From Blastopirellula retiformator (GTDB taxonomy: Bacteria; Planctomycetota; Planctomycetia; Pirellulales; Pirellulaceae), in contig NZ_SJPF01000006.1 in the NCBI RefSeq assembly GCF_007859755.1, positions 62,010 through 126,009 on the forward strand: DNA of 64,000 nucleotides, in the 5' to 3' direction. Each line of letters opens with the position of its first letter. Position 1 is the stretch's first letter. The position numbers and the translations under genes were made by a program. The notes under the pieces were generated by a model. It was not told the origin of the DNA. It was given only the letters and a program-made list of their open reading frames with translations, and made no database searches. Below, one piece after another: positions 4,251-45,012 of the stretch.

Positions 4251-4408
4251 CTATCTGCCTGTTGAAAAATGCCATCGTGGCATTTTTCAACCTCGCCAGG
4301 CTCAGAGCATAGCTCTTCGCGGCTCGCAAAATAACGACTTACGTCGTTATTTTGGGATCGCATCCGTGCGATCACGCAGTCCGTCGAGAAAATCAACGGA
4401 CTGCTATC
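4251..4408. mobile_element. 148-bp five-hairpin non-autonomous element, copy 1
   Basis: The core runs 4256-4403 and is flanked by direct repeats ctatc (4251-4255 and 4404-4408), read as a target-site duplication. It matches the inverted copy at 44727-44874 with only about four mismatches. It is a row of five hairpins: tgaaaaatgcca/tggcatttttca; agagc/gctct; aaaataacgac/gtcgttatttt; gatcgca/tgcgatc; cagtccgt/acggactg. The ends are weakly inverted (ctgcctgttga against cagtccgttga). It encodes no protein of its own. It lies upstream of the CBS gene that heads the kor cluster. The transposase that moves it is not identified. Confidence 0.85.
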
Positions 4409-4606
4409 GAGCGCGTGCGCTGGGCAGGTTGCTGCATGTCGGCGGGCGTCGAGCGTTCTCTCTTCTCGGGGAAGGCAAGGCGCCGAATGATCGCCGACTT
4501 GGGCCGTGTGGCCGTCAGGTCGCCGTCGTTTCGCTCTTCAATCTACCAAGGCCGCAACAACCACTTAAACGCAAGATCAGCCCAACTAATCCAGGATTAA
4601 CAGAAT

Positions 4607-5482
4607 TTAATCTGCCAGTCTATGGCCATTTGGTTTGTCTTCGTCGTCTGGATGCGAATAAAACTTCGAAAGGTCGAAGCCCCCTTTCTGATCTTCCTCG
4701 ATCAGCTTCAATCGCGATTCAAGCGTGTTGACCCGCTGCGCTAGATTGTGGATCAGATCTTCCGCTTCTACATGCTTTTTGGGCTTAGGTACAGACGGGT
4801 ATTTAAGCTGCCGCTGCAAAGCGGAAAAGAGCAATAAGGGATCCTTATTGCGGTTTGCTAGCGCGATCCGTCCTTCACGCGTTCCAAAGATGGGCGGCTC
4901 GTCGGGCATCGTGCCGTTTCGCCGCCGCGATTGTTGCTCGATATAGTACTCGCTCCGCACATAAATCAGATCGGCCAGATCGATCATTCCGATCCGCCGG
5001 CGCAGCGATTCCAGGAAATGCCGCCAATTTTCGTCGTACATCGGATCGCCAGCCATCGCGGCGAGACCGCCGTCGTATTTCAGCCGGTGTCGGCAGAGAA
5101 CCTCAAACTGATAGACGAACATGGCGGCGGGAGTCGTCTTCTCGGCGGCGCGAAACTCGGCCTCGAGCTTCAAGACTTCTAATGCCACGCGAAAGTCGAA
5201 TCGCCCCCGATCATCTTCGGCCGCCGCGATCAGAAAGGTCTGATACGGGGCGAAATAGTGCGACAACCGCCGCATCGCCGAGTTGAACAGGCCCAAATGT
5301 CGCAACTCCGCCAGGAGAAAATCGATCGCCATTGGCAACTTGGTGGTCGCCAAGATCTCTTCCCGCACCGACTGCAAAATGTCTTGCAGCGGGGCGTTGT
5401 CCTCGATCTTTTCACGTAGCGATTGAAAGAAAAACGATTGTTCGATGTACTCTTCGCTCGGCAGCAGCGGAGTTTGCGTCAT
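4607..5482 (-). CDS. Conserved hypothetical protein with C-terminal coiled coil
   Basis: 291 aa, not assigned to a family I can name. No signal peptide or membrane segment is visible. The protein is rich in helix-forming stretches, and residues about 235-270 (IHNLAQRVNTLESRLKLIEE) look like a short coiled coil before a charged tail ending at NGHRLAD. It starts 24 nt after the esterase gene stops, on the same strand, so the two may be co-transcribed. Codon use looks like its neighbours. Probably a planctomycete-specific cytoplasmic protein. Function unknown. Confidence 0.75.
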   Translation of the reverse strand: MTQTPLLPSEEYIEQSFFFQSLREKIEDNAPLQDILQSVREEILATTKLPMAIDFLLAELRHLGLFNSAMRRLSHYFAPYQTFLIAAAEDDRGRFDFRVALEVLKLEAEFRAAEKTTPAAMFVYQFEVLCRHRLKYDGGLAAMAGDPMYDENWRHFLESLRRRIGMIDLADLIYVRSEYYIEQQSRRRNGTMPDEPPIFGTREGRIALANRNKDPLLLFSALQRQLKYPSVPKPKKHVEAEDLIHNLAQRVNTLESRLKLIEEDQKGGFDLSKFYSHPDDEDKPNGHRLAD

Positions 5483-5506
5483 GGATCGATCGGATCTGCC
5501 CAGGCG

Positions 5507-29567: not shown

Positions 29568-29580
29568 CAAGTCGGCAATC

Positions 29581-30602: not shown

Positions 30603-30899
30603 AGGCCCAACGGGCCGGCCCTAAAGTGGCCCAGGGCGAAGTCGCGCTTCGCGACGCAGCCCTGGGTTAGGCGATCGAACAAAACGCCAAGCCCTGCAGG
30701 GGGATCTAACCGGCGTCATGTGGGATCGCGACAACATAAATCCGCGCGGCGCCAAACGCCCATCTGCCGCCGGACCGGACCATTTATCTTTTTTAGATCG
30801 CCCCCTTGGGGCTTTTGATTCTCGCTTGCAACGTTTACCCAGGGCTGCGTCGCTGGCGCGACTCCACCCTGGGCTACTTTAGCGCGGCCCGTTGGGCCT
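30603..30899. repeat. Inverted pair of REP family C
   Basis: Left unit 30603-30667 (aggcccaacgggcc... gacgcagccctgggt) and right unit 30837-30899, its reverse complement with scattered changes. Each unit holds aggcccaacgggcc and cccaggg/ccctggg palindromes. The right unit overlaps the last codons of the ATPase gene. The spacer carries gatcgccccc/ggggc, which recurs in the second pair at 32977-33175. Confidence 0.75.
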
Positions 30900-32373
30900 T
30901 TTTTCTTAACCGCTGTTTGCGTATGCGTTTTGGCTGGCCCCTCCGGGGGCTTGGGTCTTCGGGACTGGACTGTCTCGCTGATTCGTGCGGTTCGACGGGA
31001 CTGGACCGTTTTGATTTTTCGGCGACGGGACTCGTGGACGACTCTTTTTTGTTCGCGGCGTTGTTGATGACTTGATTGTCGACGTCGTTTGGTGGGGTCT
31101 TGGTCCGCACAGCGGACCCTACGGGCGGTTTGTGCAACTCGGGCGGACGGGACTGGACTGTTTCGTTTTTTTCGGTCGGTGGACTTGGTTCCTGCTTGAC
31201 GTTCTTGTCTTCGGCAGGCACGGCCTGCCCTACGCTGGAGGTCGCTTCTTTTTTCAATTGGAAAGTGGCGAAGCCGCTTCGCCGGGCGGGGGTTACTTTT
31301 TCGATTTCGCCGGCTTCTTCTAGCCGCTCCCACGCGGCGGCGAACATCGTGCCGTTCATCCCGGCATGTTCGCGCACCGTTTGCTTCATCGCTCGGTCGG
31401 GGCCGAGGTTTTCGATCACGACGCGCAGTTTGGCGTCGTGCCGCTCGTCGCGGGTCAGCGCTTCGCGGGCGGCTTGTTCGTTCTTTAGCGACGAAGGGGA
31501 ACGAACATTGGTCTGCCATCTTCGGCCATTGGCATCATTCAGACGACCTTCTTCGACATCAACGCCCCACAGGTCATCTTGCCCGGCGTCGCCGCCGACG
31601 GTTAGCCACAACTTGTGCTGCCCGCTGCCCAGTTCATAACTTTGGCGGCGATTGACCAGCAGCCATTGCCGGGCCAGATCGTGACAGCCGGCGCTTTGCA
31701 AGTCGGTCACGTCGAGCGTTCGCGGGCGAATCGTCTTGCGCGTCGCGCAGCACAGAATCGGCGTCGCGCCGCACTCAAGACAACAGCGGATCATCGCCTG
31801 CAGGTGCAACGTGTGGGCCTGCTTGGTTTTGGCCGCGACGTCGAGCGGATCGATCATCACCACTTCCAACTCGTACTTGCCGATCCAAGTCCGCAGTTGC
31901 CGCAGTTGCGTTTCCAGATTCACGCTCGCCCCTTGCAGCGCGCAGACGAACCGCGGCGTTTCTTCCCGCTGTTTGCTGGTCATCCACCGCCGCGTCAGGT
32001 CGACTAGCGATCGCTTCGCTTGTTCGCCGCTGAAGAACCCAACGCGAAATTTTCGCTGGAGCGCGAATCGCCCTAAGAATTTGCAGCCTGTCGACAGGGC
32101 CGCCACCAGGTCGACCGCCAGCGACGTTTTCAAACATTTGCTCGGCCCGCAGATGACCGCCGGAGCGCCGCGCGAGAGCACGCCAGGCACCAGCCACTCG
32201 ACCTCGTTCGCCTGATCGAGCAGTTCGACCGAGGTGAACTCTTGCAGCGGTTTGTTGGTCGCTTCAAACCGGTCGACTGCCGCCTCGATCATCGGATCAG
32301 GCACGGCGACCGGAAACATCCCTTCCCCTTGCAACAACTCCCGCATCCGCTCGATCCGCTCACTACGATTCAT
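30874..32373 (-). CDS. RecA/RepA-like AAA ATPase with disordered repeat-derived tail
   Basis: 499 aa. The start is the ATG giving MNRSERIER, with GGAGG about 8 nt upstream; the longer frame to 32556 is rejected. Residues about 60-290 are a RecA-like ATPase: Walker A reads GPSKCLKTS near 75, with Leu where Gly is usual, and Walker B is EVVMIDPLD near 160. A conserved RQWLLVNRR follows near 235. Residues about 310-365 resemble a winged helix (TVREHAGMNGTMFAAAWERL). From about 375 the protein is a low-complexity Pro/Ser/Lys tail that includes two in-frame REP palindromes. Related ATPases seem common in planctomycetes; a role in DNA handling is only inference. Confidence 0.8.
   Translation of the reverse strand: MNRSERIERMRELLQGEGMFPVAVPDPMIEAAVDRFEATNKPLQEFTSVELLDQANEVEWLVPGVLSRGAPAVICGPSKCLKTSLAVDLVAALSTGCKFLGRFALQRKFRVGFFSGEQAKRSLVDLTRRWMTSKQREETPRFVCALQGASVNLETQLRQLRTWIGKYELEVVMIDPLDVAAKTKQAHTLHLQAMIRCCLECGATPILCCATRKTIRPRTLDVTDLQSAGCHDLARQWLLVNRRQSYELGSGQHKLWLTVGGDAGQDDLWGVDVEEGRLNDANGRRWQTNVRSPSSLKNEQAAREALTRDERHDAKLRVVIENLGPDRAMKQTVREHAGMNGTMFAAAWERLEEAGEIEKVTPARRSGFATFQLKKEATSSVGQAVPAEDKNVKQEPSPPTEKNETVQSRPPELHKPPVGSAVRTKTPPNDVDNQVINNAANKKESSTSPVAEKSKRSSPVEPHESARQSSPEDPSPRRGQPKRIRKQRLRKKAQRAALK
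31102..31123 (-). repeat. REP family E embedded in coding sequence, copy 1
   Basis: ggtccgc-aca-gcggacc followed by ctacg. On the reverse strand it encodes VGSAVRT (about residues 418-424) of the ATPase tail. The same palindrome class occurs between genes at 32548-32569. Confidence 0.8.
31213..31234 (-). repeat. REP family E embedded in coding sequence, copy 2
   Basis: ggcaggc-acg-gcctgcc followed by ctacg. It encodes VGQAVPA (about residues 381-387), in the same phase as copy 1. Confidence 0.8.
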
Positions 32374-32547
32374 GATTTTGCCTCCGAGAAAAGTTGAACG
32401 CGAAACCGACAGGAATGAGAAAAGAGGCCTGAATGAGAAGCAGGGTCTGGTCTCTTTTTCGCGAGTAAGGTTCCCACACGCGCAGCACGCGACCGCGAAA
32501 AAGCGACCTGACCCTTTTTCGAAGCGTGCGCGCAAACGCGCTGCCGT

Positions 32548-32569
32548 GGTCCGCACCGCGGACCCTACG
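32548..32569 (-). repeat. REP family E, intergenic copy
   Basis: ggtccgc-acc-gcggacc plus ctacg; a 7-bp stem with 3-nt loop and conserved tail, as in the two copies inside the ATPase gene. Confidence 0.75.
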
Positions 32570-32609
32570 AATTATTTCGAATCGTGATGTCGAAAACGCT
32601 GCACCAAGA

Positions 32610-32632
32610 CACTGCTGGACAAGCCAGCAGTG
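32610..32632. repeat. REP family D palindrome
   Basis: cactgctgg-acaag-ccagcagtg, a perfect 9-bp stem with 5-nt loop followed by gcac. Confidence 0.75.
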
Positions 32633-32811
32633 GCACACGTTTCGAACTAAAAACGACTACGTCAAATGGCCACGGCGAAGAGCGTCGCCGGCCGGCGGGA
32701 AGAAACGACGGGCATCCGTCACCCATGTTGCGAGAGGCATTAGCCCAAAAGTCGAGTAATTTGTCAAACTGATTTTGACCCGAGAAAACAAGGGTGAAAA
32801 CGCACGAAATA

Positions 32812-32842
32812 GTAGCCCGAAGCGCGAGCGAGGGAAATGCGG
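32812..32842 (+). repeat. REP family A, intact copy
   Basis: gtagcccgaagcgcgagc then gagggaaatgcgg. This uninterrupted copy is the reference that shows what the split REP at 16974-17125 looked like before insertion. Confidence 0.85.
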
Positions 32843-32871
32843 ACGGAAGCAAAGCGGAAAGCGGAAAAATA

Positions 32872-32902
32872 CTAACCCGAGTCGCGAGCCGAGGGAATGC
32901 GG
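32872..32902 (+). repeat. REP family A, second sub-type
   Basis: ctaacccgagtcgcgagccg then agggaatgcgg, in the same direction as the copy at 32812, about 30 bp away, and followed by the gaatgtcgaa/aatgacgaa words. Confidence 0.75.
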
Positions 32903-32976
32903 CGTCCATTCCAAAGGACGAATGCCGAACCCCGAATGTCGAATCAAATCCGGATGCCCGAATGACGAACGCCATG

Positions 32977-33175
32977 AGGCCCGGAGGGCCGGTCCAATCT
33001 AGCCTGGGGCGCAGTCGCGCCAGGCGACGCAGCCCCAGGTCAGTGCGTGAAATCAATCGTTGACGTTGGACGGGATCGTTCGTTCGTTTGGATCGCCCCT
33101 CCGGGGCTTTCGATCAGGATGGCGACGTGACCTGGGGCTGCGCCCCAGGCTAGGTTGGATCGGCCCTCCGGGCCT
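32977..33175. repeat. Second inverted pair of REP family C
   Basis: Left unit 32977-33039 (aggcccggagggcc... gcagccccaggt) and a shorter right unit 33130-33175 in opposite orientation. The spacer holds gatcgcccctccggggcttt, a variant of the spacer in the pair at 30603-30899. Confidence 0.7.
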
Positions 33176-33355
33176 GAAAACGGATGGGGGCGTTGTTGGC
33201 GGGGCAATCCGGACCTGACCGACATAACAGGGTCCCCTTCTCGGCGACACTCCCTCCACCTCGATTGCACCAGCTTGAGGTGCGTTAGAATCGTCTTTTC
33301 TGACGTGACGTTGTTCGTAGTTCTTCGTAAGACAACCTGTTCTCACGAGATAAAG

Positions 33356-33730
33356 ATGGCGAACTTTCGCTGTGAGCGTATTCTACTTCGCCTGAATGAA
33401 ATGATTCGCGACTTCGACCCCAACGGCGGTCTCGATCACGAAGAGCTCGCTTGGTCGTTAGGGGATCAAACGGATTATGGTCCCAATGATCCGCAAATGT
33501 GGGACTACGTCGTTGGGCCGGGTGAACGACCTCGCTGGCACTCCGCGATGGCTGGACTGAATACCTTACGTAGCCTGATAGAGCGTCTGGAGAATCCAGC
33601 TTTCTCGGCACAGCGAACGCCCGAAGCGGTTCAATCGCAACTGGTCGCCCTGCGAGCGTTGGAAGAGAAACTGGATCGGATCGATACCTACGATCGGAAG
33701 TTCTATCTGTTAGCCAAGGATTTAGGATAG
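33356..33730 (+). CDS. Small hypothetical protein
   Basis: 124 aa, start at the ATG giving MANFRCERI; the frame extends upstream but only into REP sequence. It is acidic and mostly helical in appearance, with an EELAWSLGDQTDYGPNDPQMW segment at about 31-51 and a C-terminal helix LVALRALEEKLDRIDTYDRKF. No signal peptide, metal motif or membrane segment. I do not recognise the family. It is isolated from its neighbours by repeats on one side and 160 bp on the other. Confidence 0.6.
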   Translation: MANFRCERILLRLNEMIRDFDPNGGLDHEELAWSLGDQTDYGPNDPQMWDYVVGPGERPRWHSAMAGLNTLRSLIERLENPAFSAQRTPEAVQSQLVALRALEEKLDRIDTYDRKFYLLAKDLG

Positions 33731-33891
33731 CGGTCTCCGCGCCCTAAATTCCCCTGCACGGCATTTTTCTCGCTGACGGTTTGGGGACAAAGCCCATTTC
33801 TTCCTTGCATTCCCCCGGGCGATGCTCGATAACAGACGGACCTAGATCTCACGCGATATCTTGCCTCCTATTCCCGCCTGGAGATCCGCTA

Positions 33892-35310
33892 ATGAAGTCG
33901 CCGTTTGGTCTGCTGTCGTTGGTTGTCATCACTTGCCTGTTCGCTCAGTCCTCTTTGGCAGGTGAGTTGCGATTGGCGACGTTTGCAATCGACGCCTCGC
34001 CGGAGGTTGGTTCGCCGCTAGCCTACGATCCGACGAAGGAAGTTACCTGGCCGCTTAGTTGTCGCGGGGTGGTGCTGACTGGCGCCGACAAGCCGATCGT
34101 GTTGTGTGCGGTCGATTGGATTGGGATTGCGAATGACTCCAGCCGATTGTTTCGCCAAAAACTGGCCGATGCGACCGGGACGACGATCGACCGAGTGGCG
34201 GTCCATACCTTGCATCAGCATGACGCGCCCCGTTGCGATTTTGGGGCGGCGAAGATCTTGGCGAAGTACAACGCCGAGAAGGTTCACTACGACGTCGAGT
34301 TTCTCCACGAGGTGATCGACCGCGCGGCCGCAGCCGCCAAAGCGTCGCTGCAGACTTCGACGTCGATTACCAGCCTGGCAATTGGTGCGGCCGAAGTGAA
34401 CGATGTCGCCTCGAATCGCCGGATGCTCGACGCCGAGGGAAAAGTGGCGATCACGCGCTATACCGCCTGCAAGGATCCCAAGATTCGCAGCTTGCCGGTC
34501 GGCGTCATCGATCCAATGTTGCGACTGGTCACGTTTTACCAAGGGGAAAAACCGGTCGCCGTGATCACCACCTACGCGACCCATCCGCAAAGTTACTACC
34601 GCACCGGCGGCGCCAATCCCGACTTCCCCGGCATGGCTCGCGACATGCGACAAGAGACGACCGGCGTATTTCATCTTCACTTCAATGGAGCTGGCGGCAA
34701 TATTGGCGCCGGCAAGTTTAATGACGGCTCGCGAGAAAATCGTCAGGTGTTGGCCGACAAAGTCGCCGACGCCATGCGGCGTGCCTGGGAGTCGCAGACC
34801 AAAACGCCAATCACCGCCGACGACGTCGGTTGGAACAGCGTCGCCGTTTTGCTGCCGGCCGCGGCGCATCTGGATGGCGAAGCCTTGGCGAAAGAAATCG
34901 CCAGCGAAGCGACGCCGCCTGCGTTGCGGGGGCACGCCGCCGACAAGCTCTCGTTTTCCAACAGCTTGAAGTCGGGCGAAAAAATCACGATCGGCTGCTT
35001 GAGCTTGGGCGATACCCGCGTCTTATTCATGCCGGGCGAGTTGTTCGTCGAGTATCAACTGGCCGCCCAGCAAATGCGGCCCGACCAGAACGTGTTGATG
35101 GCCGCCTATGGCGATTATGGTCCGTTTTACATCGGCACTCGGATCGCCTATTGGCAGGGGGGCTACGAGACCAGCGAGCGGGCGACCAACGTGTCGCCCG
35201 AGGTAGAACAGGTGCTGACCACCGCGATCGCGACCCTTCTGGAGGTTCCCGATACCCAAGTTCGGCCCAATGATTTCACCGACACGACCGGACCTGGCCT
35301 ACCGCAATAG
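33892..35310 (+). CDS. Secreted ceramidase-like (neutral/alkaline) protein
   Basis: 472 aa. The start is the ATG giving MKSPFGLLS, with GGAG upstream. A signal peptide ends near SSLAG. The sequence matches the pattern of the neutral/alkaline ceramidase N-terminal family: ATFAIDASPEVGSPL near 28, HTLHQHDAPRCDFG near 106 (a possible metal-binding His cluster) and TYATHPQSYYRTGG near 230. The usual serine nucleophile context is not seen (FNGAGGNIGAG instead), so lipid hydrolysis is uncertain. Probably periplasmic. It stands apart from its neighbours and no operon is evident. Confidence 0.75.
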   Translation: MKSPFGLLSLVVITCLFAQSSLAGELRLATFAIDASPEVGSPLAYDPTKEVTWPLSCRGVVLTGADKPIVLCAVDWIGIANDSSRLFRQKLADATGTTIDRVAVHTLHQHDAPRCDFGAAKILAKYNAEKVHYDVEFLHEVIDRAAAAAKASLQTSTSITSLAIGAAEVNDVASNRRMLDAEGKVAITRYTACKDPKIRSLPVGVIDPMLRLVTFYQGEKPVAVITTYATHPQSYYRTGGANPDFPGMARDMRQETTGVFHLHFNGAGGNIGAGKFNDGSRENRQVLADKVADAMRRAWESQTKTPITADDVGWNSVAVLLPAAAHLDGEALAKEIASEATPPALRGHAADKLSFSNSLKSGEKITIGCLSLGDTRVLFMPGELFVEYQLAAQQMRPDQNVLMAAYGDYGPFYIGTRIAYWQGGYETSERATNVSPEVEQVLTTAIATLLEVPDTQVRPNDFTDTTGPGLPQ

Positions 35311-35601
35311 TCGCCCAACGCGATAAACCAGGCAAATCGCGTTGCGTCCACGCATCATAAAACGTTCACTTCTTCGCGGCTTATAGTAGAAATACTGCAT
35401 CAACGCGGCGATTCTTTGCCAAGTTGCGACAGTATTTTCTCTCTTTGCTCATTTCAATCCGGTATCTTAAAGGTGGGCCTGCCAGAAAAACGGCTTCCTA
35501 GATTCGCCAAACGAACGGCTGCGGCGCCCGGCGCTGGCTGACCAGCGCCCCCCCGGCGGCGGCTGTTCTCTCCCACACACAACTGGATTGGAGGTGCGTT
35601 G

Positions 35602-36546
35602 ATGACGACATCCGCGAAAGCCCTCGCTGCGCTGCTGCTGCTCGCGATCCCAGCCTACGGCCAAGAGGTAAAACCGCCCACCAAAGAGACGCAACCGGCC
35701 GAAACCGCGGCGCCCAAGGCGTCTCTCAACCAAGACGAAACCGCCATTGCGGCGGCGATTGAGTCATACGTGATCGCCTTCAACAAAGGGGACGCAGAAA
35801 CGCTGGCGGCCCACTGGACGCCTGAGGGGACCTTCACCCCGCCTGGCGGCGAAACGCTAATCGGACGCAAAGCGCTGCAGGAGAGCTTTGCCGCCTACTT
35901 CGCCGAAAACAAAGAGGCGAAGATTGAACTGCTGGAGACCGCGGTCACCCAGGTCTCGCCCAGCGTCGCCAAGGAAGCGGGCGTCGCCCGGGTGATTGTG
36001 CCTGGCGGCGAGCCGAGCGACACCACCTATACCGCGATCCATGTCAAAACGTCGGAAGGTTGGAAGATCGACAGCATCGCCGAGCAAGCGCCCGCCGCGC
36101 TGCCGCCGAGTCATTATGAAGAACTGCAGGCGCTAGAGTGGATGGTCGGCCGGTGGGTCGATGCGGACGAAGCGTCTTCGATCGAGTCGACGACCCAGTG
36201 GACCAAGAACCGCAACTTTCTGACGACCTCGTTCAAAGTGGTGGTCGACGGGCAGGTTGAGTTTGAGGGGACGCAGGTGATCGGCTGGGATCCATACGCC
36301 CAGACGATTCGCTCGTGGGTGTTCGATTCGGACGGCGGTTTTGGGGCTGGACGGTGGACCAACCAAGGCAACCTGTGGACCGTGCAAACGATCAATGTCC
36401 TTTCGGATGGACGCCGCGGCTCGGCAACCCACATCTACGAGTCGATCGACGACAACACGATGCGGTTTGAATCGATCGGCCGCCAAGTCGATGGCGAACT
36501 GATGCCGAGCATCCCGCCGGTCACCGTGACGCGCGTCGCTGAGTAA
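35602..36546 (+). CDS. Secreted SnoaL/DUF4440-like protein
   Basis: 314 aa. The start is the ATG preceded by GGAGG; a TTG one codon earlier was not used. A signal peptide ends at AYG. Residues about 45-150 form a SnoaL/NTF2-like domain (AIAAAIESYVIAFNKGDAE, then HWTPEGTFTPPGG), as in SgcJ/EcaC-type proteins. Residues about 175-310 are a second beta-rich domain (MVGRWVDADEASSIEST; VIGWDPYAQTIRSWVFDSDGG) seen in similar planctomycete proteins. The domain is a generic small-ligand fold, so no reaction is proposed. The next gene, a repetitive secreted protein, starts 52 nt later. Confidence 0.8.
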   Translation: MTTSAKALAALLLLAIPAYGQEVKPPTKETQPAETAAPKASLNQDETAIAAAIESYVIAFNKGDAETLAAHWTPEGTFTPPGGETLIGRKALQESFAAYFAENKEAKIELLETAVTQVSPSVAKEAGVARVIVPGGEPSDTTYTAIHVKTSEGWKIDSIAEQAPAALPPSHYEELQALEWMVGRWVDADEASSIESTTQWTKNRNFLTTSFKVVVDGQVEFEGTQVIGWDPYAQTIRSWVFDSDGGFGAGRWTNQGNLWTVQTINVLSDGRRGSATHIYESIDDNTMRFESIGRQVDGELMPSIPPVTVTRVAE

Positions 36547-36598
36547 GACTCCGCCGCGTCGTTTCGTTCCCCCAAACATCCCAATAGGAATCTTTCCC

Positions 36599-38116
36599 AT
36601 GACTTTCAAATATGCAATCGGCGTCGCCGTCGTCCTGGCGGCTTCCCTTTCCGTAACGGACATATGGGCCCGCGGAGGTCGCTCCGGCGGCGGCGGTGGA
36701 GGCGGTCGCGTTGGCGGCGGGGGCGGCATCTCGCGTCCCAGCGGCGGCGGTGGAATTTCGCGTCCCAGCCCGGCGTCGCGCACCCCTTCGATGAGTCGCC
36801 CTTCCGCGTCGCGGCCGAGCGTCTCGCGGCCGAACATTTCGGCGCCTAGCGCTTCGCGGCCGAGCGTTTCTCGCCCTGACCATTCCAACCGCCCCAGCAT
36901 CAATCGCCCATCGACCGGCGGCAATACGCCGAATCTCTCTCGTCCCGATTTGTCGAATCGGCCGAACATCAATCGTCCCACGACCGGCGATCGGCCGAAC
37001 CTGACGAAGCCCGATCTCTCGAACCGCCCGAACTTGAATCGGCCCACGACCGGTGATCGGCCGAATTTGACCAAGCCTGACTTCGCCAACCGGCCCGACC
37101 TGAATCGTCCCGGAAGTGGCAATCGCCCTGACCTGTCGAACCGCCCGAACTTTTCGAGTCGGCCTTCTGGCGACGACCTGAAGAACTTCCTCGATTTGCC
37201 CGGCGGGGGAACGCGCCCCGGAACCGGTGATCGTCCTGACTTCGCCAATCGCCCCAACCTGGGCGACAAGACGAACATCGGCGATCGCGTCAATATCGGC
37301 GGCGGCGACAAAACGAATATCGGGGGAGATCGCATCAACATTGGAGGCGGCGATCGAACCAACATCAACATCGGCGGCGGCAACAAGGTCAACATTGGCA
37401 ACCGCGAAAACAACATCAATTCAATTCGCGATCACTGGTCGAACTACGACAACCGCCACTTTGGCAATCGGCCGTTCGGCAACGACTGGTGGGGCAATCC
37501 GCACTACCGCAACAATCCGTCCTGGCGGTGGCAAGCCGGTTGGAACCGCTACCCCGGCAACTGGTGCTGGCGACCGGCGGCGTGGGCTTCGTTTGGCACT
37601 TGGTTCGTCTGGAACTGGTCACAGCCGGTCGTTTATGACTATGGCACGAACGTCGTTTATCGCGACAACTACGTCTACGTCAACGATCAGCAAACGGTCA
37701 CTTACGAGCAGTACTACCAACAGGCCGACACGATCGCCGCCAGCATTCCGGCCGAGGCCGATCCTGCCGAAATCGAGTGGATGCCGCTCGGCGTGTTTGC
37801 GATCGCCGAAGAGAACGCCGTCGACACCGGCATGCTGATCCAACTGGCGGTCAGCAAAGACGGCATCATCGCCGGCACGTTTTATAACGACGCGACCGAC
37901 GATGGTCGTCCGTTGCAAGGAATGGTCGACAAAGACTCGCAGCGGGCCGCCTGGAAGTTCGCCGATGGCAAAAATCCGGACATCGTGATGGAGACGGCGA
38001 TTTACAACCTGACGCAGGACGAATCGACGGCGCTGGTCCACTTTGGCGAGGACCGCACCGAGTCTTGGCTGATGGTTCGCTTGCCAGAACCGGAGTCCGA
38101 CGCGACGACCAAATAG
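36599..38116 (+). CDS. Repeat-rich secreted surface protein
   Basis: 505 aa. A signal peptide ends near IWA. Residues about 25-55 are Gly-rich. Residues about 55-205 consist of Ser/Arg/Pro/Asn repeats (SRPS, NRPNINRPTTGDRPNLTKPD-type units of about 20 residues). Residues about 210-285 hold GDKTNIGGD/RINIGGG repeats with a beta-roll look. An aromatic stretch (NDWWGNPHYRNNPSWRW) and a structured C-terminal domain (about 385-495) follow. Planctomycete genomes label such proteins as mu-protocadherin-like cell-surface proteins. A structural role outside the cell is likely. Repeat number may vary between strains. Confidence 0.8.
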   Translation: MTFKYAIGVAVVLAASLSVTDIWARGGRSGGGGGGGRVGGGGGISRPSGGGGISRPSPASRTPSMSRPSASRPSVSRPNISAPSASRPSVSRPDHSNRPSINRPSTGGNTPNLSRPDLSNRPNINRPTTGDRPNLTKPDLSNRPNLNRPTTGDRPNLTKPDFANRPDLNRPGSGNRPDLSNRPNFSSRPSGDDLKNFLDLPGGGTRPGTGDRPDFANRPNLGDKTNIGDRVNIGGGDKTNIGGDRINIGGGDRTNINIGGGNKVNIGNRENNINSIRDHWSNYDNRHFGNRPFGNDWWGNPHYRNNPSWRWQAGWNRYPGNWCWRPAAWASFGTWFVWNWSQPVVYDYGTNVVYRDNYVYVNDQQTVTYEQYYQQADTIAASIPAEADPAEIEWMPLGVFAIAEENAVDTGMLIQLAVSKDGIIAGTFYNDATDDGRPLQGMVDKDSQRAAWKFADGKNPDIVMETAIYNLTQDESTALVHFGEDRTESWLMVRLPEPESDATTK

Positions 38117-38323
38117 CGGCGTCGCTGGCCGCAGACAACCGCACCGACCGGGCGATTCCCTACGAGATCGCCCGATTTTTTCGTGCGCGGTCCCGCCAAG
38201 CGTCTTGCGCAATTGGGATATATTTATGCGCATCCTATCACTTGGGATTCTCCCTCGCTCAGCCTACCATCGAAGCTATCTCCTGACATAAACTTCGCCC
38301 ATTTCTCGCTCAGACCGAACTGT

Positions 38324-40393
38324 ATGACGCCGCAGCTTCGCCCTCGACTTCGCTTGCTCGTTTTGCTCACGATCGCCGTCTTCTTCGCTAATTCCCCAGT
38401 TAGTGCGAAGCCGCCGGAAGATCGCCAGCAAATCGAAGCGGATTTGGCCGAAGCGCTCCTGCCCGCGCTGAAACGCCATCGAGGCGAAGCGGCGGTCGTC
38501 ATCAAACATCTGCCTAGCGGCGCGACCTTCGCCTTTCATGGCGATCGCCCTCAATCAACCGCCAGCCTGATCAAGTTGCCGCTGCTGATGGCGCTGTACC
38601 AGGCGGTCAACGAGAAACAGGTGACGCTCGACGCGCTGGTCGAAATGAAAAAAGAAGACCAGGTCCCTGGCTCCGGCATTTTGACTGGCCACTTCTCGCC
38701 GGGGCTGAAGCTTTCGGTCCGCGACGCCGCTCACCTGATGGTCACCTACTCCGACAACACCGCGACCAACCTGGTCATCGACCAAGTTGGCCTGCCGGCG
38801 ACCCGCAAGTTGATGAAGACGCTCGATTGCCCCAGCACGCAGCTCAACTCGAAGGTCTTCCGCCGCGACACCTCGATCGACATCGAAAGCAGCAAGCAGT
38901 ACGGCCTGGGCGTTACCTCGTGCGACGACATGATTCGCCTGCTGGAGCTGCTGCACAAGGGCGAGTTTATAGACAAAGCGACCTCGCAGGCAATCATCGA
39001 CCAGCTCGCCTTCGTCAACGACAAGTCGAAGGTGACCCGTTTTCTGCCCCCCGGCGTCAAACCGGCGCACAAGACCGGCGCCGTCAATGACGCCCGCACC
39101 GACGCCGGTATCATCCCGCTGCCGGAAGGGGCGCTGCTGTTTTGCGTGTTGACGCAGCAGAATGAAGACCGCAGTTGGGGGGACAAGAACGAAGCCGAAC
39201 TGCTGGCCGCCGAAATCGGCCAGGTCGCTTACCATTATTTCGCCGATGGCAAGATCACCGCACCCGCCCCGACCAGCACGACGCTCGCCCTCGGCGCTGA
39301 AGGAGAGTTGGTCGAAGCGCTGCAGCGGACGCTCAACGCCCGGATGAAACCATCGCCCCAGTTAGGCGTCGACGGCGACTTCGGTCCCAATACCGAAGCG
39401 GCGCTGATCCGCTTTCAATCGGACAAGGGGCTGATCGCCAATGGCGCCGTCGATCGTCAGGTCTGGAAGGCGCTCGGTCCGCTGGTGACCGAAGACGAAG
39501 CGGTCGCCGACATCGCCGAAGTCAACGCCGCCGTCGCCACCAAGGCCCCGGCCGATTCGCTCGAAGGTTTGCCGTTCGTCACGGCCAAGGCCTGGACGGT
39601 GATCGACCTCGACAGCGGTAAGACGCTGGGCGGCGACAATGCCGACGGAGTTCGCGACCCGGCCAGCGTCACCAAGATCATGACCGCCTATCTCGTGTTG
39701 CAGATGGCCGAGGAATCGCCGGAGTTGCTGGACGAAATCGTCACCTTCTCGCAGCGAGCCGACAAGACGCCAGGCTCAACCTCCGGCTTAAAAGTGGGAG
39801 AACAGGTCTCCGTCGGCGAGTTGCTGTACGGCTTGATGCTCCCTTCGGGCAATGACGCGTCGGTCGCCCTGGCCGAACATTTCGGCGATCGCCTATCCCC
39901 CGATCCGGCGAAGAAAGGACACGACGGCTTTGTCGCCGCGATGAATAGCCAAGCCGAAAAGCTCGGCATGACCCAGACCGGCTACGCGAACCCGCACGGG
40001 CTGACCGCCAAAGGGCATGTCACCACCGCCGCCGATATGGCGAAGCTGGGCCGAGCCGCGATGCAACTGGAGCGGTTCCGCGAGATCGTCGCCACGCCGC
40101 AGCGCGGCGCCACCGTCGAGTCAAAGACCGGCTACCAGCGGAACGTCATCTGGCGAAACACCAATCGCCTGCTGCACCAGGAAGGCTATTTCGGTGTGAA
40201 GACCGGCACCACCGGCCAGGCAGGCGCCTGCCTGGTTTCCTGCTGCGAGCGAGACGGCAAACGCGTGCTCATGGTGGCGCTTGGTTCCAGTTCGACCGAC
40301 TCCCGCTACGCTGATACCCGCAACCTCTATCGCTGGCTCTGGAACGAGTTGGCCAGCCAACCGGCCGAACCAGCGAAACCCATTGGCGGCTAA
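38324..40393 (+). CDS. Triple-domain fusion: class A beta-lactamase-like hydrolase, PG-binding domain, D,D-carboxypeptidase (S11)
   Basis: 689 aa. The start is the ATG giving MTPQLRPRL; a signal peptide ends near SAKP. Domain 1 (about 35-305) has SLIK at 81-84, an SDN motif near 140 and a KTG motif near 250, the class A serine-hydrolase set. Domain 2 (about 320-385) is a peptidoglycan-binding repeat ([27 protein letters not shown]). Domain 3 (about 415-675) is an S11 D-Ala-D-Ala carboxypeptidase with SVTK near 450, SGN near 512 and KTGTTGQAG near 627. Two active-site serines in one protein is unusual. It should trim peptidoglycan peptides in the periplasm. The M19 dipeptidase gene follows after 37 nt. 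Confidence 0.88.
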
Positions 40394-40430
40394 CGGCTCT
40401 ACCGCTTCTCTACTTTGACTGAATTGATAC

Positions 40431-41699
40431 ATGCACGACAACCATATATCCTGGCTGGCCGCGGCGCTGGTCACCTTGGCAGGCGTCTCCCCAATCCTGG
40501 CCGAGGACTCCACCTTCCAGCCGACTCCTCCCCAGTCGCGCGGCGACGTCGTCCTGACCGACGAAGCGAAGAAGTTGCACGAGGCGCTGCTGATGATCGA
40601 CGGGCACAACGACATGCCGTGGGAGATCCGCATCAAGGGCTCCAGCGATTTCGACAAGCTCGACATCAGCAAACCGCAACCGAAACTGCACACCGATATT
40701 CCACGACTGCGCGAAGGAAACGTCGGCGCCCAGTTCTGGTCGGTTTGGGTTCCGGTGTCGACGGGCTACGATGGCACGGCGCTATTGTCGACGCTAGAGC
40801 AGATTGATCTGGTCAAAGCGATGATCAAGCGGTACCCAGACGATATGGAACTGGCCCTGACGGTCGACGATATCGAGCGGATCTCGAAGGAAGGCAAGAT
40901 CGCCTCGCTGATCGGCGTCGAAGGGGGACACTGCATCGAGGATTCGATCGGCAACCTCGAACGCCTGTATGACCTGGGCGCTCGCTACATGACGCTCACC
41001 CACAGCGCCAGTCTCAGTTGGGCCGACAGTTGCACCGGCGAGAAGATCAGCGGCGGGCTCAACCCGTTCGGCGTGCATGTGGTCGAAACGATGAATCGCT
41101 TGGGGATGATGGTCGACGTTTCGCACGTTTCTCCGGCGACGGCGCATGCGGCGCTCGACGCCAGTAAGGCGCCGGTCATCTTCTCGCATTCGTCCGCAGC
41201 CGCGATCGCCGCATCGCCGCGCAACGTTCCCGACGACGTCCTGAAGCGGATGCCGGAAAACGGCGGCGTCGTGATGGTCAACTTTTTCTCGTCGTTCATC
41301 GTGCCGGAATCGGTCGCCCGTTATGAAGAAGGGAAAGCCCTGGAAAAGGAACTGACCGAAAAACATGGCGCCGAGCAGGCGGCCGTTTTGCTGCGTCGCT
41401 GGAAGAGCAAGAATCCGCAGCTGCCCGGCAACATCCACGACCTGCTTGACCACATCGATCACATCGTCAAAGTCGCCGGTTGGCGGCATGTTGGCATCGG
41501 ATCGGACTACGACGGCGTCACGCTGGTGCCGAAAGGACTGGAAGACGTCAGCCGCTATCCCTACATCACGCAAGGTTTGCTCGACCGCGGCTACACGCCC
41601 GAGCAGATCAAAGCGATCATGGGCGGCAACCTGATCCGCGCGATGCGCGAAGTCGAAGCGACCGCCAAAAAGCTGCAAGCGCAAGCGGCGGCGAAGTAA
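40431..41699 (+). CDS. Membrane dipeptidase (renal dipeptidase, M19)
   Basis: 422 aa. A signal peptide ends near ILAED. The M19 zinc ligands are visible: HxD in DGHNDMPWEIR near 57-67, Glu in GVEGGHCIE near 163-171, His in MMVDVSHVSPA near 224-234 and VIFSHSSA near 250-257, and GSDYDGV near 358-364. M19 enzymes cleave dipeptides, including those with a C-terminal D-residue. Its position 37 nt after a D,D-carboxypeptidase fusion suggests the two process cell-wall peptides together. That shared role is inference. It is followed by a hairpin REP that could end the transcript. Confidence 0.92.
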   Translation: MHDNHISWLAAALVTLAGVSPILAEDSTFQPTPPQSRGDVVLTDEAKKLHEALLMIDGHNDMPWEIRIKGSSDFDKLDISKPQPKLHTDIPRLREGNVGAQFWSVWVPVSTGYDGTALLSTLEQIDLVKAMIKRYPDDMELALTVDDIERISKEGKIASLIGVEGGHCIEDSIGNLERLYDLGARYMTLTHSASLSWADSCTGEKISGGLNPFGVHVVETMNRLGMMVDVSHVSPATAHAALDASKAPVIFSHSSAAAIAASPRNVPDDVLKRMPENGGVVMVNFFSSFIVPESVARYEEGKALEKELTEKHGAEQAAVLLRRWKSKNPQLPGNIHDLLDHIDHIVKVAGWRHVGIGSDYDGVTLVPKGLEDVSRYPYITQGLLDRGYTPEQIKAIMGGNLIRAMREVEATAKKLQAQAAAK

Positions 41700-41707
41700 C
41701 GGCAGGC

Positions 41708-41788
41708 GTAGGGTGGGTGGAGCAAACGCGCCGCCGCGCGCTTGCTCCACCCACTCTACATTGGCTTTAGCGCGGCCCGTTGGGCCTG
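41708..41788. repeat. Hairpin repeat followed by a REP family C fragment
   Basis: gtagggtgggtggagcaa pairs with ttgctccacccactctac (41708-41759) around a GC-rich loop, and then ttagcgcggcccgttgggcc (41767-41788) repeats part of family C. They lie between the convergent dipeptidase and regulator genes. Confidence 0.7.
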
Positions 41789-41807
41789 GTAAGAAATGGG
41801 CGAATTT

Positions 41808-42995
41808 TTAGTCCGCCATCAGCCGTTTTCGGAAGTTCCTCGGCGTTGTTCCAAAACTCTTGCGGAACGCGATCCCAAAGCGGGTGGCGTTGGAGAATCC
41901 GCAGGCGAGCGCCACTTCGGTGATCGACATCTCGCGATTACCGAGCAACTCGCGGCCGCGTTCTAGTTGCACGCGGCGGATTTCTTCGGCCGGAGAGCGG
42001 CCAAGGTATGAGCGGAATTGCATTTCCAGACTCCGCCGCGAGATCGGCACTTCGCGGAGGACGTCGGCGACGCTGATGCCGCGCTGCGTATGTTTTTGGA
42101 TGAAGCGGAGCGCTCGGACGATCATCGGGTCGTCGATCGCCAACACGTCGGTCGACTGGCGACTGACCACGCCATGCGGCGAGATCGTCAGCGGCGTAGT
42201 CGACGCAGGCTGACCCTCCATCATCCGATGGATCATCGCCGCCGCCTCGTAGCCGATTCGTTCGCAGGCCAGCGAAATCGAAGAGAGCGGCGGCGTTGAA
42301 ACTTCGCAGAGCAGTTCGTCCGAGTCCCCCGCTAAAATCGCAATCTCGTCCGGCACGCGAATCGAGGTGAAGTGGCAAACCTCGGCCAACTGTCGCGCAT
42401 GATACGCGTCGACCGCCAACACCGCGATCGGCCGCGGCAGCGAAGTGAGCCAACGATTGACGCGCCGCTGTTGCTCACTCCACTTGATCTTGCGTCCCGC
42501 TCGATAGCCAGGCCGGTAGCTCTGGCACTCGAAACCCCGCTGTGTGACCGCTTGCTCAAACTCTTCCCAACGGCGGCTCGAATAGCGCTGACTGGGGGGC
42601 GCGAAAAACGCAAAGTTCGTGAACCCGCGAGCGACGAGATGCTCGACCGCCAATTCGGCCCGGGCGCCTTCATTGGTAATCACGCGTCCCACGCGGGGGA
42701 GATCGCCATAGACGTCGTCGACGTTGACCGAGGGCAGTTTTTTCTCGACGATTTGATCGGCTTGCAGCCGCGTCGAAATGCGGGCGATGATGCCGTCCCC
42801 TTTCCAGCCGTCAGGCAGCGAGGACCGCTGCTCATGGTCGCGGGGATCGATCAGCAGGTGCCAGAACGTATGTTTATCGGCATAACTGGCGATCCCGCGA
42901 ATGACGCGACGTCCCCAACTCGTCTCGGTCTCGACCATGACGGCGATCTGGCGGATCTGCAGTTTCTCGCCGCGGCGATGCGAATCAGGTTCCAT
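41808..42995 (-). CDS. XylR-like AraC family transcriptional regulator
   Basis: 395 aa, start at the ATG giving MEPDSHRR. The layout is as in the paralogue at 18232: a periplasmic-binding-protein-like sensor (QIAVMVETETSWGRRVIRGI near 17; ILAGDSDELLCEVSTPPLSSI near 215) and a C-terminal AraC double helix-turn-helix (ISRRSLEMQFRSYLGRSPAEEI, then ITEVALACGFSNATRFGIAF). It is divergent from anmK, with about 256 bp between the starts. It may respond to a sugar or amino sugar and control the salvage genes; this is inference from position. Confidence 0.88.
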   Translation of the reverse strand: MEPDSHRRGEKLQIRQIAVMVETETSWGRRVIRGIASYADKHTFWHLLIDPRDHEQRSSLPDGWKGDGIIARISTRLQADQIVEKKLPSVNVDDVYGDLPRVGRVITNEGARAELAVEHLVARGFTNFAFFAPPSQRYSSRRWEEFEQAVTQRGFECQSYRPGYRAGRKIKWSEQQRRVNRWLTSLPRPIAVLAVDAYHARQLAEVCHFTSIRVPDEIAILAGDSDELLCEVSTPPLSSISLACERIGYEAAAMIHRMMEGQPASTTPLTISPHGVVSRQSTDVLAIDDPMIVRALRFIQKHTQRGISVADVLREVPISRRSLEMQFRSYLGRSPAEEIRRVQLERGRELLGNREMSITEVALACGFSNATRFGIAFRKSFGTTPRNFRKRLMAD

Positions 42996-43251
42996 CAAAA
43001 CGACGTGCCAATGGGTGGTGGTGAACGAGACAAGAGGAGCGGCAGGGCCAAACGTTTCTCCGCAAGGACGACTTGGCGGATGCGCAAACGCGATCTAGAA
43101 TTCTCTCTATATCACCACGCTTCGGCAAGCCGACTATTTGGAAGCAGATCCTTCGTTCTGCAAAGAGCGGCAGGATTCGCCCTGCTATTTCGTGTAGGAT
43201 GCCTGTTAGAGCTTTCTATTGACGAACAACCAGACGCCGACTGTTGTGGCA

Positions 43252-44331
43252 ATGAATAAACAACATTTTGCAATTGGGCTGATGAGCGGCACCTCCGCTG
43301 ATGGAGTCGACGCGGCGCTGATCAGCACCGATGGCGAAAGCGACGTTGATTTTCTCGGCGGGCTCACGCTCCCCTATCCCGAGCAACTGCGGGCTCGCGT
43401 GCTCGAGGCTTCGCAGCACAACGTCCGGATCGATGAGCTATTGCGCGTGGAGCGCGAGCTGACGCTCCATCACGTCCAGGCGGTCAAAGCGCTGATCGCG
43501 CAACTGGGCGACGCGGCTCGGCACGCGGCGATCATTGGCTTTCATGGCCACACGGTACGCCATTTTCCAGGCGAAGGACTCACGCTGCAGCTGGGCAATC
43601 CCTGGCTGTTGGCCGAGCAAACCGGCATTCAGGTCGTCTCCGACTTTCGCCGCCATGACATGGCCCGCGGAGGACAAGGGGCGCCGCTCGTCTCGCTATT
43701 CCATCGGGCGATCTTCGCCAACGAAACGGAACCGGTCGTCGTGCTGAACCTCGGTGGCGTCGCCAACGTCACCTGGCTTGGTCCCAACGGTGAGATCATC
43801 GCCGGCGACTCCGGCCCGGGGTGCGGCCTGCTGGACGAATGGGTCCAGGAGATGGCCGACATCAGTCACGACGAGGATGGCCGCTTGGCGCTGAAAGGAA
43901 AAGTGCACGAAGGGATCGTCCGCGAAGCGCTCTCGGTCGACTTCTTCCGCAAGCCGCTGCCGAAGTCGGCCGATCGATTTGATTTTGATCATGTCGACGT
44001 CTCGGGGCTCAGCGTCGAGGATGGCGCCGCCACGTTGTGCGCCGTCACCGTGCAAGCGATCAGCGGCGCCGTTTCTCGGATGGCGCAAGAACCGGCCGTA
44101 CTATGGGTCACCGGCGGCGGCGTCCATCATCCGGTCATCATGAAGATGCTGGTCGACCGCTTCACAGACGTCCGCTCGATCAGCCAACGGGGCCTCTCGC
44201 CCGATACGCTCGAAGCGGAATGCTTCGCCTGGCTCGCCGTCCGCCACCAGCTTGGTCTGCCGCTGACGATCCCAGAAACGACCGGCTGCAGCGAACCGAC
44301 CATCGGCGGCAGCATCACGCCGCTGCAGTAA
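43252..44331 (+). CDS. anmK: Anhydro-N-acetylmuramic acid kinase
   Basis: 359 aa. AnmK opens and phosphorylates 1,6-anhydro-MurNAc to MurNAc-6-P. The nucleotide-binding motif is IGLMSGTSADGVDAALI at residues 8-24, with GFHGHTVRHFPG near 98, VVSDFRRHDMARGGQGAPL near 127 and a second phosphate motif in VVVLNLGGVANVT near 159. The start is the ATG giving MNKQHFA; an upstream TTG frame would add 11 residues. It lies near murQ and a BadF-type kinase, completing two entries into MurNAc-6-P. The XylR-like gene is divergent. Confidence 0.94.
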   Translation: MNKQHFAIGLMSGTSADGVDAALISTDGESDVDFLGGLTLPYPEQLRARVLEASQHNVRIDELLRVERELTLHHVQAVKALIAQLGDAARHAAIIGFHGHTVRHFPGEGLTLQLGNPWLLAEQTGIQVVSDFRRHDMARGGQGAPLVSLFHRAIFANETEPVVVLNLGGVANVTWLGPNGEIIAGDSGPGCGLLDEWVQEMADISHDEDGRLALKGKVHEGIVREALSVDFFRKPLPKSADRFDFDHVDVSGLSVEDGAATLCAVTVQAISGAVSRMAQEPAVLWVTGGGVHHPVIMKMLVDRFTDVRSISQRGLSPDTLEAECFAWLAVRHQLGLPLTIPETTGCSEPTIGGSITPLQ

Positions 44332-44370
44332 AACTAACCCGAGGCGCGAGCCGAGGGAATGCGGCCCCCA

Positions 44371-45012
44371 TCATTTACGGTCCTGCGCCTCGAGTGTGTA
44401 AATGATCGCGCCTACCAGCGCTACCTCGTCATTCAAGTCGCGTCCGCTGCCTAGTTCCGCCCACCACGCTTCGCGTGACGCCCCCATTTCGTTCAACCGC
44501 CGCGTCGCCCAATACTTCAATTGCCGCATCACTTCTTTAGGATGTACGTCGGCCGCGACCACGACGTGAACGTGATTCGAACGGCAGTTGACCGCGTGAA
44601 GGATCCAATTCCGAAAATGGCAGTGATCGCCAATCGCTTGCTCGACGACCTGCCGTTGCTCAAGATTCAGGAATACCTCCTCCTCTTTCATTGACTGCGT
44701 CGCCGCTCGTTGCCGAATCTTGTTAGCAGTCCGTTGATTTTCTCGACGGACTGCGTGATCGCACGGATGCGATCGCAAAATAACGACGTAAGTCGTTATT
44801 TTGCGAGCCGCGAAGAGCTATGCTCTGAGCCTGGCGAGGTTGGAAAAAGCCACGATGGCAGTTTTCAACAGGCAGTTAGGACGTTGGTCACCGCGAGACT
44901 TTTTCACCCACCCGCGATCGTCCCCCGGCAACCAACTGCCGTAGGTTCGCCTTGTCAAGAAATAGGCCAATGGTGCGGGAAGCGGCGGTTCGTTTGGGCG
45001 ACGAATATTCAC
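44371..45012 (-). pseudogene. REP-associated (RAYT/Y1-type) transposase, interrupted
   Basis: Two halves lie in the same frame. The N-terminal part (GTG at 45012; [20 protein letters not shown] at 16-35) ends at GDQRPN. The C-terminal part runs from KIRQRAATQSMKEEEV to YTLEAQDRK and holds the HUH motif HVHVV in CRSNHVHVVVAAD and a candidate catalytic Tyr in AIIYTLEA. Removing 153 bp (44722-44874) gives an uninterrupted protein of about 162 aa, a normal size. The insert is a multiple of three but adds one in-frame TAG at about 44818. Family features are those of single-strand HUH/Y1 nucleases that act on REPs. Probably non-functional now. Confidence 0.85.
44722..44879 (-). mobile_element. 148-bp five-hairpin non-autonomous element, copy 2
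   Basis: The core runs 44727-44874 and is flanked by gttag on the plus strand (ctaac read with the gene) at 44722-44726 and 44875-44879. It is the inverted counterpart of the copy at 4256-4403 and differs at about four positions. It interrupts the RAYT gene. Copy 1 has a different duplication (ctatc), so the two are separate insertion events. Confidence 0.88.

What the first reader, a model, noticed from the sequence alone, without database searches (positions are those of the whole stretch)
4251..44879. A 148-bp element of five hairpins with target duplications at two sites
Positions 4256-4403 and 44727-44874 are inverted copies that differ at about four bases. Each is flanked by its own direct repeat (ctatc and ctaac). 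The different flanks show two independent insertions, so this is mobile DNA. It consists of five consecutive hairpins, an unusual modular design, and encodes nothing. Known: short non-autonomous elements move with the transposase of a larger relative. Inference: its partner transposase sits elsewhere in the genome.
Basis: partly seen in the sequence, partly recalled or inferred. Interest (0 to 1): 0.8.

Follow-up and report, generated by a model that had tools for sequence, protein, structure and literature searches.

The report
Mobile five-hairpin element, possibly RNA-coding
The two repeats are copies of a 149-base jumping DNA element present about 300 times in this planctomycete genome and probably moved by a borrowed enzyme; its five hairpins have been kept by matching changes in many related bacteria, which suggests that it carries a structured RNA rather than being junk.

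Summary
Both copies are real (4255-4403 and 44727-44875, inverted). The element is 149 bp and its target duplication 4 bp (CTAT; TTAG), not 5. The genome has 296 core matches. Of 102 distinct copies examined, 74 carry an exact 4-bp duplication, 56 of them YTAR (15.9 of 102 expected for re-paired flanks). It is a non-autonomous transposon.

Partner family: IS1182-like transposases. Both ends (CWGYCYGTTGA) were found in 75 of 110 loci, 48 with an exact 4-bp duplication (reversed control: 1 of 110). In this genome I found only remnants. An IS4-family element inside several copies is not the parent: it lands in the tip of hairpin 1.

Unexpected: a model of the five hairpins matches 43 of 396 genomes of the order. 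Stems change by compensation (266 double-changed cells versus 64 shuffled), G-U outnumbers A-C 97 to 34 on one strand of an unfitted alignment, and the hairpin-4 loop has GGA in 29 of 29 genomes with 22 different stem arms. Five genomes of another genus hold an end-less relative in one slot of a tRNA array. I read it as a mobile structured RNA; CsrA binding is an untested guess.

The parts
4255..4403 (-). element copy 1, 149 bp; strand given is the one on which the structure is modelled (5' CAGTCCGTTGA ... CAACAGGCAG 3')
4251..4254 (.). target duplication CTAT, left
4404..4407 (.). target duplication CTAT, right
4261..4291 (-). hairpin 1 of copy 1; the same tip is the landing site of an IS4-family element in other copies
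4295..4323 (-). hairpin 2 of copy 1
4327..4354 (-). hairpin 3 of copy 1
4356..4373 (-). hairpin 4 of copy 1, loop CGGA (4363-4366 on the minus strand)
4377..4403 (-). hairpin 5 of copy 1, made of the right terminal repeat and an inner inverted copy of it
44727..44875 (+). element copy 2, 149 bp
44723..44726 (.). target duplication TTAG, left
44876..44879 (.). target duplication TTAG, right
44727..44753 (+). hairpin 5 of copy 2
44757..44774 (+). hairpin 4 of copy 2 (loop CGGA)
44776..44803 (+). hairpin 3 of copy 2
44807..44835 (+). hairpin 2 of copy 2
44839..44869 (+). hairpin 1 of copy 2 (two broken pairs against the model)

Best explanation
The two repeats are copies of a 149-bp miniature transposon. 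Its ends match those of IS1182-like DDE elements of about 1.5 kb, whose transposase presumably cuts and moves it, and it inserts mostly at YTAR with a 4-bp duplication (ends and duplications shown; catalysis inferred). What it carries between the ends is not debris of that transposase gene. It is a string of hairpins whose stems are maintained by compensatory change, with G-U tolerated on one strand and a conserved GGA loop in hairpin 4. The most likely reading is that the cargo is a structured RNA that has spread by borrowing a transposase, comparable to a eukaryotic SINE (inferred). An end-less relative at one position of a tRNA array in a sister genus is either a fixed old copy or a non-mobile form (not decided).
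For: Genome: 296 matches to a 34-base core with up to 3 mismatches, 0 for the control. Duplication: 74 of 102 distinct copies, 56 of the 74 YTAR; re-paired flanks give 15.9. Partner: both ends in 75 of 110 loci, 48 of the 75 with an exact 4-bp duplication, control 1 of 110. The same-genus partner L204, whose sequence lies in a Blastopirellula marina DSM 3645 record, has CTAG|CAGCCCGTTGA on both sides. Ends change together: in family f8 both the IS (L215, L216, L219, L221) and small elements (L368, L369) have GTGGCC in place of GTTGA; L219 and L369 are from the same genome, G156. Structure: 43 of 396 order genomes, 26 of 144 genera at E<=0.001. In 33 matches at E<=1e-9, 92.9% of cells paired versus 74.7% shuffled, 266 double-changed cells versus 64, 46 of 55 pairs with a double change (alignment fitted to the model). 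Unfitted alignment of 34 sequences: GU 97, AC 34. GGA in the hairpin-4 loop in 32 of 33 rows, and in 29 of 29 genomes taking one row each, with 22 distinct 5' arms. An end-less relative in the same slot of a tRNA array in five genomes of genus g58.
Against: No transcript has been seen, and no sigma-70-like promoter was found in 4000-4700 around copy 1. The better folding energy of the modelled strand is mostly base composition: -5.7 kcal/mol observed, -4.4 in shuffles. Rows share ancestry, so the GU/AC and covariation counts are not independent; hairpin 4 itself shows no bias (GU 14, AC 15, partly misaligned). In the tRNA array the modelled strand is antisense to the tRNAs. In this genome neighbouring genes point into the hairpin-1 end (71 versus 32) with no bias at the other end (53 versus 45), so read-through would mostly make the other strand. 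No intact partner was found in the genome itself. There is no similarity between the small element and the partner elements beyond about 17-27 bp at the ends.
Confidence: 0.68

Rival explanations
1. Ordinary MITE: only the ends matter; the hairpins are inert filler, kept symmetrical by template-switch (quasi-palindrome) correction during replication, which makes matching changes on both arms without any function.
For: Ends and 4-bp duplications explain the mobility. Stable secondary structure is usual for bacterial MITEs (passage of PMC2229807). Shorter variants of 26 and 43 bp made of little more than ends exist in the same genome, each between TTAG and CTAG.
Against: Correction should act alike on both strands, yet GU exceeds AC 97 to 34 on one strand in an unfitted alignment. 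It should not hold a loop: GGA in 29 of 29 genomes while 22 different stem arms occur.
Confidence: 0.22
2. Transcription insulator: hairpins 1 and 3 (A-tract, stem, T-tract) act as bidirectional terminators, so insertions between genes are tolerated or useful.
For: 6 of 120 copies interrupt a coding frame versus 222 of 300 random window points. Convergent neighbours exceed divergent ones, 32 to 12 (p 0.004), and genes point into the hairpin-1 end 71 to 32 (p 0.00015).
Against: The pattern scan found no terminator-like site inside copy 1 (the scan wants the T-run after the stem, here it is part of it). Terminators do not need a conserved GGA loop in a different hairpin. Absence from genes and promoters is expected of any insertion after selection. 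The other end shows no gene bias (53 versus 45).
Confidence: 0.25
3. Deletion derivative of the IS4-family element (429-aa transposase) found with the same outer ends in this genome.
For: Two 1709-bp units carry the same outer ends; in L068 they share 31 of 32 and 128 of 137 bases with the small element.
Against: The IS4 unit is 1553 bp with its own ends (CAATAC.GTTCGGCAC) and lies in the tip of hairpin 1 in 7 of 9 copies or fragments, 6 of them with an exact 9-bp duplication, in both orientations. One further copy (L161) lies at another target and one (L166) has mixed flanks. Relatives in G030, G306 and G014 lie in other palindrome-like sequences. Nested insertion, not ancestry.
Confidence: 0.02

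Closest known systems
Bacterial MITEs (RUP, Correia/NEMIS, ERIC, CIR)
   Same: Under 200 bp, no protein, terminal repeats, target duplication, transcripts predicted to be highly base-paired; RUP has a proposed partner IS (passages of PMC2229807 and PMC3733652 seen)
   Different: Five separate hairpins; stems covary across many genera with strand-biased wobble and a conserved GGA loop; YTAR target. CIR elements also have two arms, a linker and a loop motif, with conserved properties in Caulobacter and Brucella, so a conserved loop by itself is not unprecedented
IS1182 / IS5-like insertion sequences
   Same: Terminal sequence and 4-bp YTAR duplication shared with DUF772 + DDE elements
   Different: No transposase gene; no similarity beyond the ends
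Csr/Rsm-type RNAs (CsrB, RsmY/Z)
   Same: GGA in the loop of a short hairpin, most often CA-N-GGA-UG, close to the CsrA consensus RUACARGGAUGU (passage of PMC4347634); 13 CsrA-domain matches in this genome
   Different: One GGA hairpin per element in most rows, a second in hairpin 1 of some; no binding data; mobile
Eukaryotic SINEs (recalled, no call)
   Same: Structured RNA gene spread by another element's enzyme
   Different: DNA-transposon ends and duplication here; no reverse transcription suggested

Membership tests
MITE | short, no coding capacity, high copy number | tested here: met
   149 bp in 93 of 102 copies; 296 core matches
MITE | target-site duplication | tested here: met
   74 of 102 exact 4 bp, 15.9 by re-pairing
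MITE | terminal inverted repeats shared with an autonomous element | tested here: met
   imperfect 11-bp ends, 8 of 11 alike between left and right by reading; shared with IS1182-like elements
MITE | actual movement by that transposase | not testable with these tools
   needs a transposition assay
IS1182 family (partner) | transposase over the NCBIfam cut-off | tested here: not met
   P0002, the truncated own copy: IS1182 model 163.2 bits, cut-off 270; IS5_4 94.7, cut-off 140. Hence 'IS1182-like'; intact relatives were not scored
IS1182 family (partner) | DUF772 and DDE domains | tested here: met
   PF05598, PF01609, PF13751 all over cut-off in P0002
IS4 family (as parent) | outer ends of the element are the transposon's own ends | tested here: not met
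   IS4 ends lie inside hairpin 1 with a 9-bp duplication
REP/RAYT or IS200/IS605 derivatives | insertion without target duplication (recalled) | tested here: not met
   4-bp duplication present; the GTAG/CGTC tags named in PMC3733652 were not tested
known Rfam families | score at or above gathering threshold | tested here: not met
   no match to the element in the window, nor at E<=5 over the element in L002, L364, L365, L366, L370
Csr/Rsm RNA | GGA-loop hairpins | tested here: met
   hairpin 4: 32 of 33 rows, 29 of 29 genomes
Csr/Rsm RNA | CsrA binding and regulation | not testable with these tools
   no experiment

The most novel reading that the evidence does not exclude
A mobile structured-RNA family of Planctomycetota, a bacterial counterpart of SINEs: an RNA with GGA-loop hairpins that proteins of the CsrA type could bind, spread to about 300 copies in one genome by an unrelated DNA transposase, with a settled copy in the tRNA array of one genus. 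In a genome with up to 13 CsrA domains it could act as a dispersed CsrA sink or put new genes under CsrA control.
Probability: 0.3. Interest if true: 0.82.

Novelty: new variant of a known kind. Interest (0 to 1): 0.62.

Why it matters
MITEs are usually treated as ends with filler. Here the filler itself looks maintained: five hairpins kept by compensatory change across many genera, with one loop motif held. If the strand bias means RNA, this is a natural set of hundreds of near-identical RNA genes in one genome that can be tested for expression and protein binding, and a case of an RNA made mobile by a borrowed transposase. It also links an IS family to its small partner through matching changes of the ends in a separate lineage.

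Tried and rejected
IS4 element as parent: first taken from matching outer ends, rejected after its own ends and 9-bp duplications were found. The other multi-copy transposase (406 aa, ends CACGGCGAT) and an IS1182 transposase over its cut-off at C4 (likely ends CAATGAGGCTGTGAGTTT) do not share the ends. Strand preference from folding energy alone: 18 of 18, then 28 of 33 sequences favoured one strand, but shuffles show most of it is composition, so I rest only on the GU/AC count. Promoter-like site: none in 4000-4700. Rfam: none. Literature: searches (terms in the calls) listed no paper whose title or abstract start describes this element. Papers were seen only as listings except PMC2266710 (outline, sections 6 and 8), PMC1525189 (outline with abstract), and PMC3733652, PMC4347634, PMC2229807 (passages). 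The library holds open-licence papers only.

Limits: the 102 copies are not a random sample of the 296: 30 best BLAST hits, 80 places from the lists (mostly exact core matches) and the transposase loci. 27 shorter BLAST rows were set aside and 3 repeats. Partner loci include places fetched from two collections (for instance L204 and L300), and two of the 75 pairs (L311, L330) have odd lengths and may be chance. In one search genes were called by a simple codon score; 120 distinct copies from 141 loci passed. One search scored 4 of 16 candidates in the own genome; searches scored all of theirs. One search kept the best 80 of 170. Searches scored at most 7 and 8 candidates per genome with strict filters, so misses are possible and copy numbers there are lower bounds. 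For one search, 10 of the 33 rows of A5 were left out for length (not 140-152 bases), then L360 and L361; identical sequences counted once.
Full report
What is there. The window holds two inverted copies of one element, 4255-4403 and 44727-44875. Aligning 31 copies and then 102 distinct copies puts the element at CTGCCTGTTGA...TCAACGGACTG, 149 bp in 93 of 102 copies, flanked by a 4-bp duplication. A 4-bp duplication fits 74 of 102 copies, a 3-bp one 1 and a 5-bp one 1; re-pairing left and right flanks at random gives 15.9 for 4 bp. The duplications are CTAG 18, CTAA 18, TTAG 16, CTAT 8, TTAA 4 and others 10, so 56 of 74 are YTAR; window copy 1 has CTAT.

Copy number and place. The own genome (6.2 Mb, 10 contigs, 97.3% complete) has 296 matches to a 34-base core with up to 3 mismatches and none for the reversed control. 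Copies differ from their consensus by 3.7% on average (93 copies, one out-of-register row included), which suggests a fairly recent burst. Of 120 copies with enough flank, 6 would interrupt a coding frame, against 222 of 300 random window points.

A false parent. Two 1709-bp units in the genome carry a 429-aa transposase between the same outer ends. It scores 216.9 bits on an NCBIfam IS4 model, cut-off 115. Comparing copies shows that the IS4 unit is 1553 bp with ends CAATAC.GTTCGGCAC. In 7 of 9 copies or fragments both flanks are the tip of hairpin 1 (CCATCGTGG and variants), 6 of them exact 9-bp duplications. Combining the strands with the flanks, four lie in one orientation and three in the other. 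One copy is at another site and one has mixed flanks. Relatives in G030, G306 and G014 lie in other palindrome-like sequences. So it lands in the element and did not give rise to it. Preference of IS elements for repeated palindromes is known (PMC1525189, abstract), and target specificity in IS4 subgroups is described (PMC2266710, section 6).

The partner family. One own transposase remnant (P0002, C1:769726-770961) has DUF772 and DDE domains and ends in TCAACGGGCTG|CTAG. Its 5' part is cut by what reads like an IS3-type element (by eye, not searched). Its relatives in the order (30 of 396 genomes with the own one) and in named genomes are mostly 1.4-1.5 kb. In 75 of 110 loci two facing CWGYCYGTTGA ends were found 1.0-2.2 kb apart (reversed sequence: 1 of 110), 48 of the 75 with an exact 4-bp duplication, 43 of these YTAR. 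L204, from the window's genus, lies in a Blastopirellula marina DSM 3645 record, which names the genus by inference. The element's left end (CTGCCTGTTGAAAAATGCCA) and right end (CAGTCCGTTGATTTTCTCG) resemble ends of L200 and L208. In family f8 both IS (L215, L216, L219, L221) and small elements (L368 at one end, L369 at both) carry GTGGCC instead of GTTGA, L219 and L369 in the same genome G156. In the own genome only P0002 and end remnants at C2:9120, C2:272543 and C4:293803 were found. The transposase may be lost, in the missing part, or different in detail.

Relatives of the small element. BLAST finds it in 10 of 60 genomes, the own included. A covariance model (R1) matches 43 of 396 genomes of the order, 26 of 144 genera, at E<=0.001. 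A broader model (R2) matches 11 of 392 genomes drawn from the phylum, five of them outside the order, two of those only at E near 3e-4. Of 30 order loci, 3 were too short to judge, 6 lack an IS-like start, and of the other 21, 10 have an exact 4-bp duplication.

Structure. On 33 model-aligned matches (32 distinct), 92.9% of cells pair versus 74.7% shuffled, 266 cells have changes on both sides versus 64, and 46 of 55 pairs show at least one double change; slid structures reach 35-40%. That alignment is fitted to the model. In an unfitted MAFFT alignment of 34 sequences the modelled strand has 97 GU and 34 AC cells (hairpin 5: 22 and 2; 4: 14 and 15; 3: 31 and 6; 2: 14 and 4; 1: 16 and 7), so wobble is tolerated on that strand more than on its complement. 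The loop of hairpin 4 contains GGA in 32 of 33 rows (the exception is a second copy in G072) and in 29 of 29 genomes with one row each, with 22 distinct 5' arms; in the other hairpins the commonest loop trinucleotide reaches 24 of 33 at most. In the own genome a simple pattern finds GGA there in 93 of 102 copies. In elements outside the order (L377, L386, L378, L387) hairpins with GGA loops recur at both places although the middle differs (by reading).

A settled form. In five genomes of genus g58 (L364, L365, L366, L370, L380) a relative without the IS ends occupies the same slot of a tRNA array, between tRNA-Asp(gtc) and a gene called Val(tac) or Cys(aca). In at least three further g58 genomes (G098, G130, G181) no match was found. 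Hairpin 2 is nearly identical to the window's in L364, L365 and L366; L370 lacks its tip and L380 most of it. Other stems have changed with compensation, and GGA is kept in the hairpin-4 loop of all five (by reading). It may be an old insertion kept by selection or a non-mobile form; the data do not decide.

Mechanism proposed. Shown: ends, duplications, partner family, siting between genes, hairpin conservation, strand bias, loop conservation. Inferred: the partner transposase cuts at the ends; the modelled strand is transcribed and the RNA is bound by a protein. The GGA loop, most often CA-N-GGA-UG, is close to the CsrA consensus, and the genome has 13 CsrA-domain matches (of 14 control genomes E. 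coli, B. subtilis and T. maritima had matches). I give CsrA binding about one chance in four.

Against this reading. No promoter-like site was found near copy 1. Genes tend to point into the hairpin-1 end (71 versus 32), which would transcribe the other strand. The tRNA-array copies are antisense to the tRNAs. Folding energy does not favour the strand much beyond composition. Hairpin 4, which carries the conserved loop, shows no GU bias of its own. The insulator and the inert-filler readings stay open.

Verdict. A new variant of a known kind, with a real prospect of something more unusual.

Noticed in passing
window 29577-45128 (copies at 29577, 30364, 32808, 32868, 44330, 45078): A second repeat family with core TAACCCGAGGCGCGAGCCGAGGGAATGCGGC on both strands, looking like a REP-type palindrome.
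   Followed up: no
window 33131-33175: Rfam Acido-Lenti-1 RNA (RF01687, 41.4 bits, cut-off 37), in the stretch that holds several copies of the repeat above.
   Followed up: no
L159, L160, L162-L165, L167: An IS4-family element uses the tip of hairpin 1 as its landing site with a 9-bp duplication.
   Followed up: yes
G000:C1:203451 (L252) and G000:C4:293882 (L259): Minimal variants of 26 bp (little more than the two ends) and 43 bp (palindrome of the left end), each between TTAG and CTAG.
   Followed up: partly
own genome G000: 13 CsrA-domain matches, many more than the single gene recalled for E. coli.
   Followed up: no
L364, L365, L366, L370, L380: A long tRNA array, 10 to 19 tRNA genes per ~3.1-kb locus, shared by five genomes of genus g58.
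   Followed up: partly
L367 1378-1619: Two identical 119-bp relatives of the element side by side, 4 bp apart, in a family f8 genome.
   Followed up: no
G000 C1, C2, C4, C5, C6, C9 (L057-L066): About ten copies of a second transposon family (~1260 bp, ends CACGGCGAT, 406-aa DDE transposase), one just outside the window at C6:60047.
   Followed up: no
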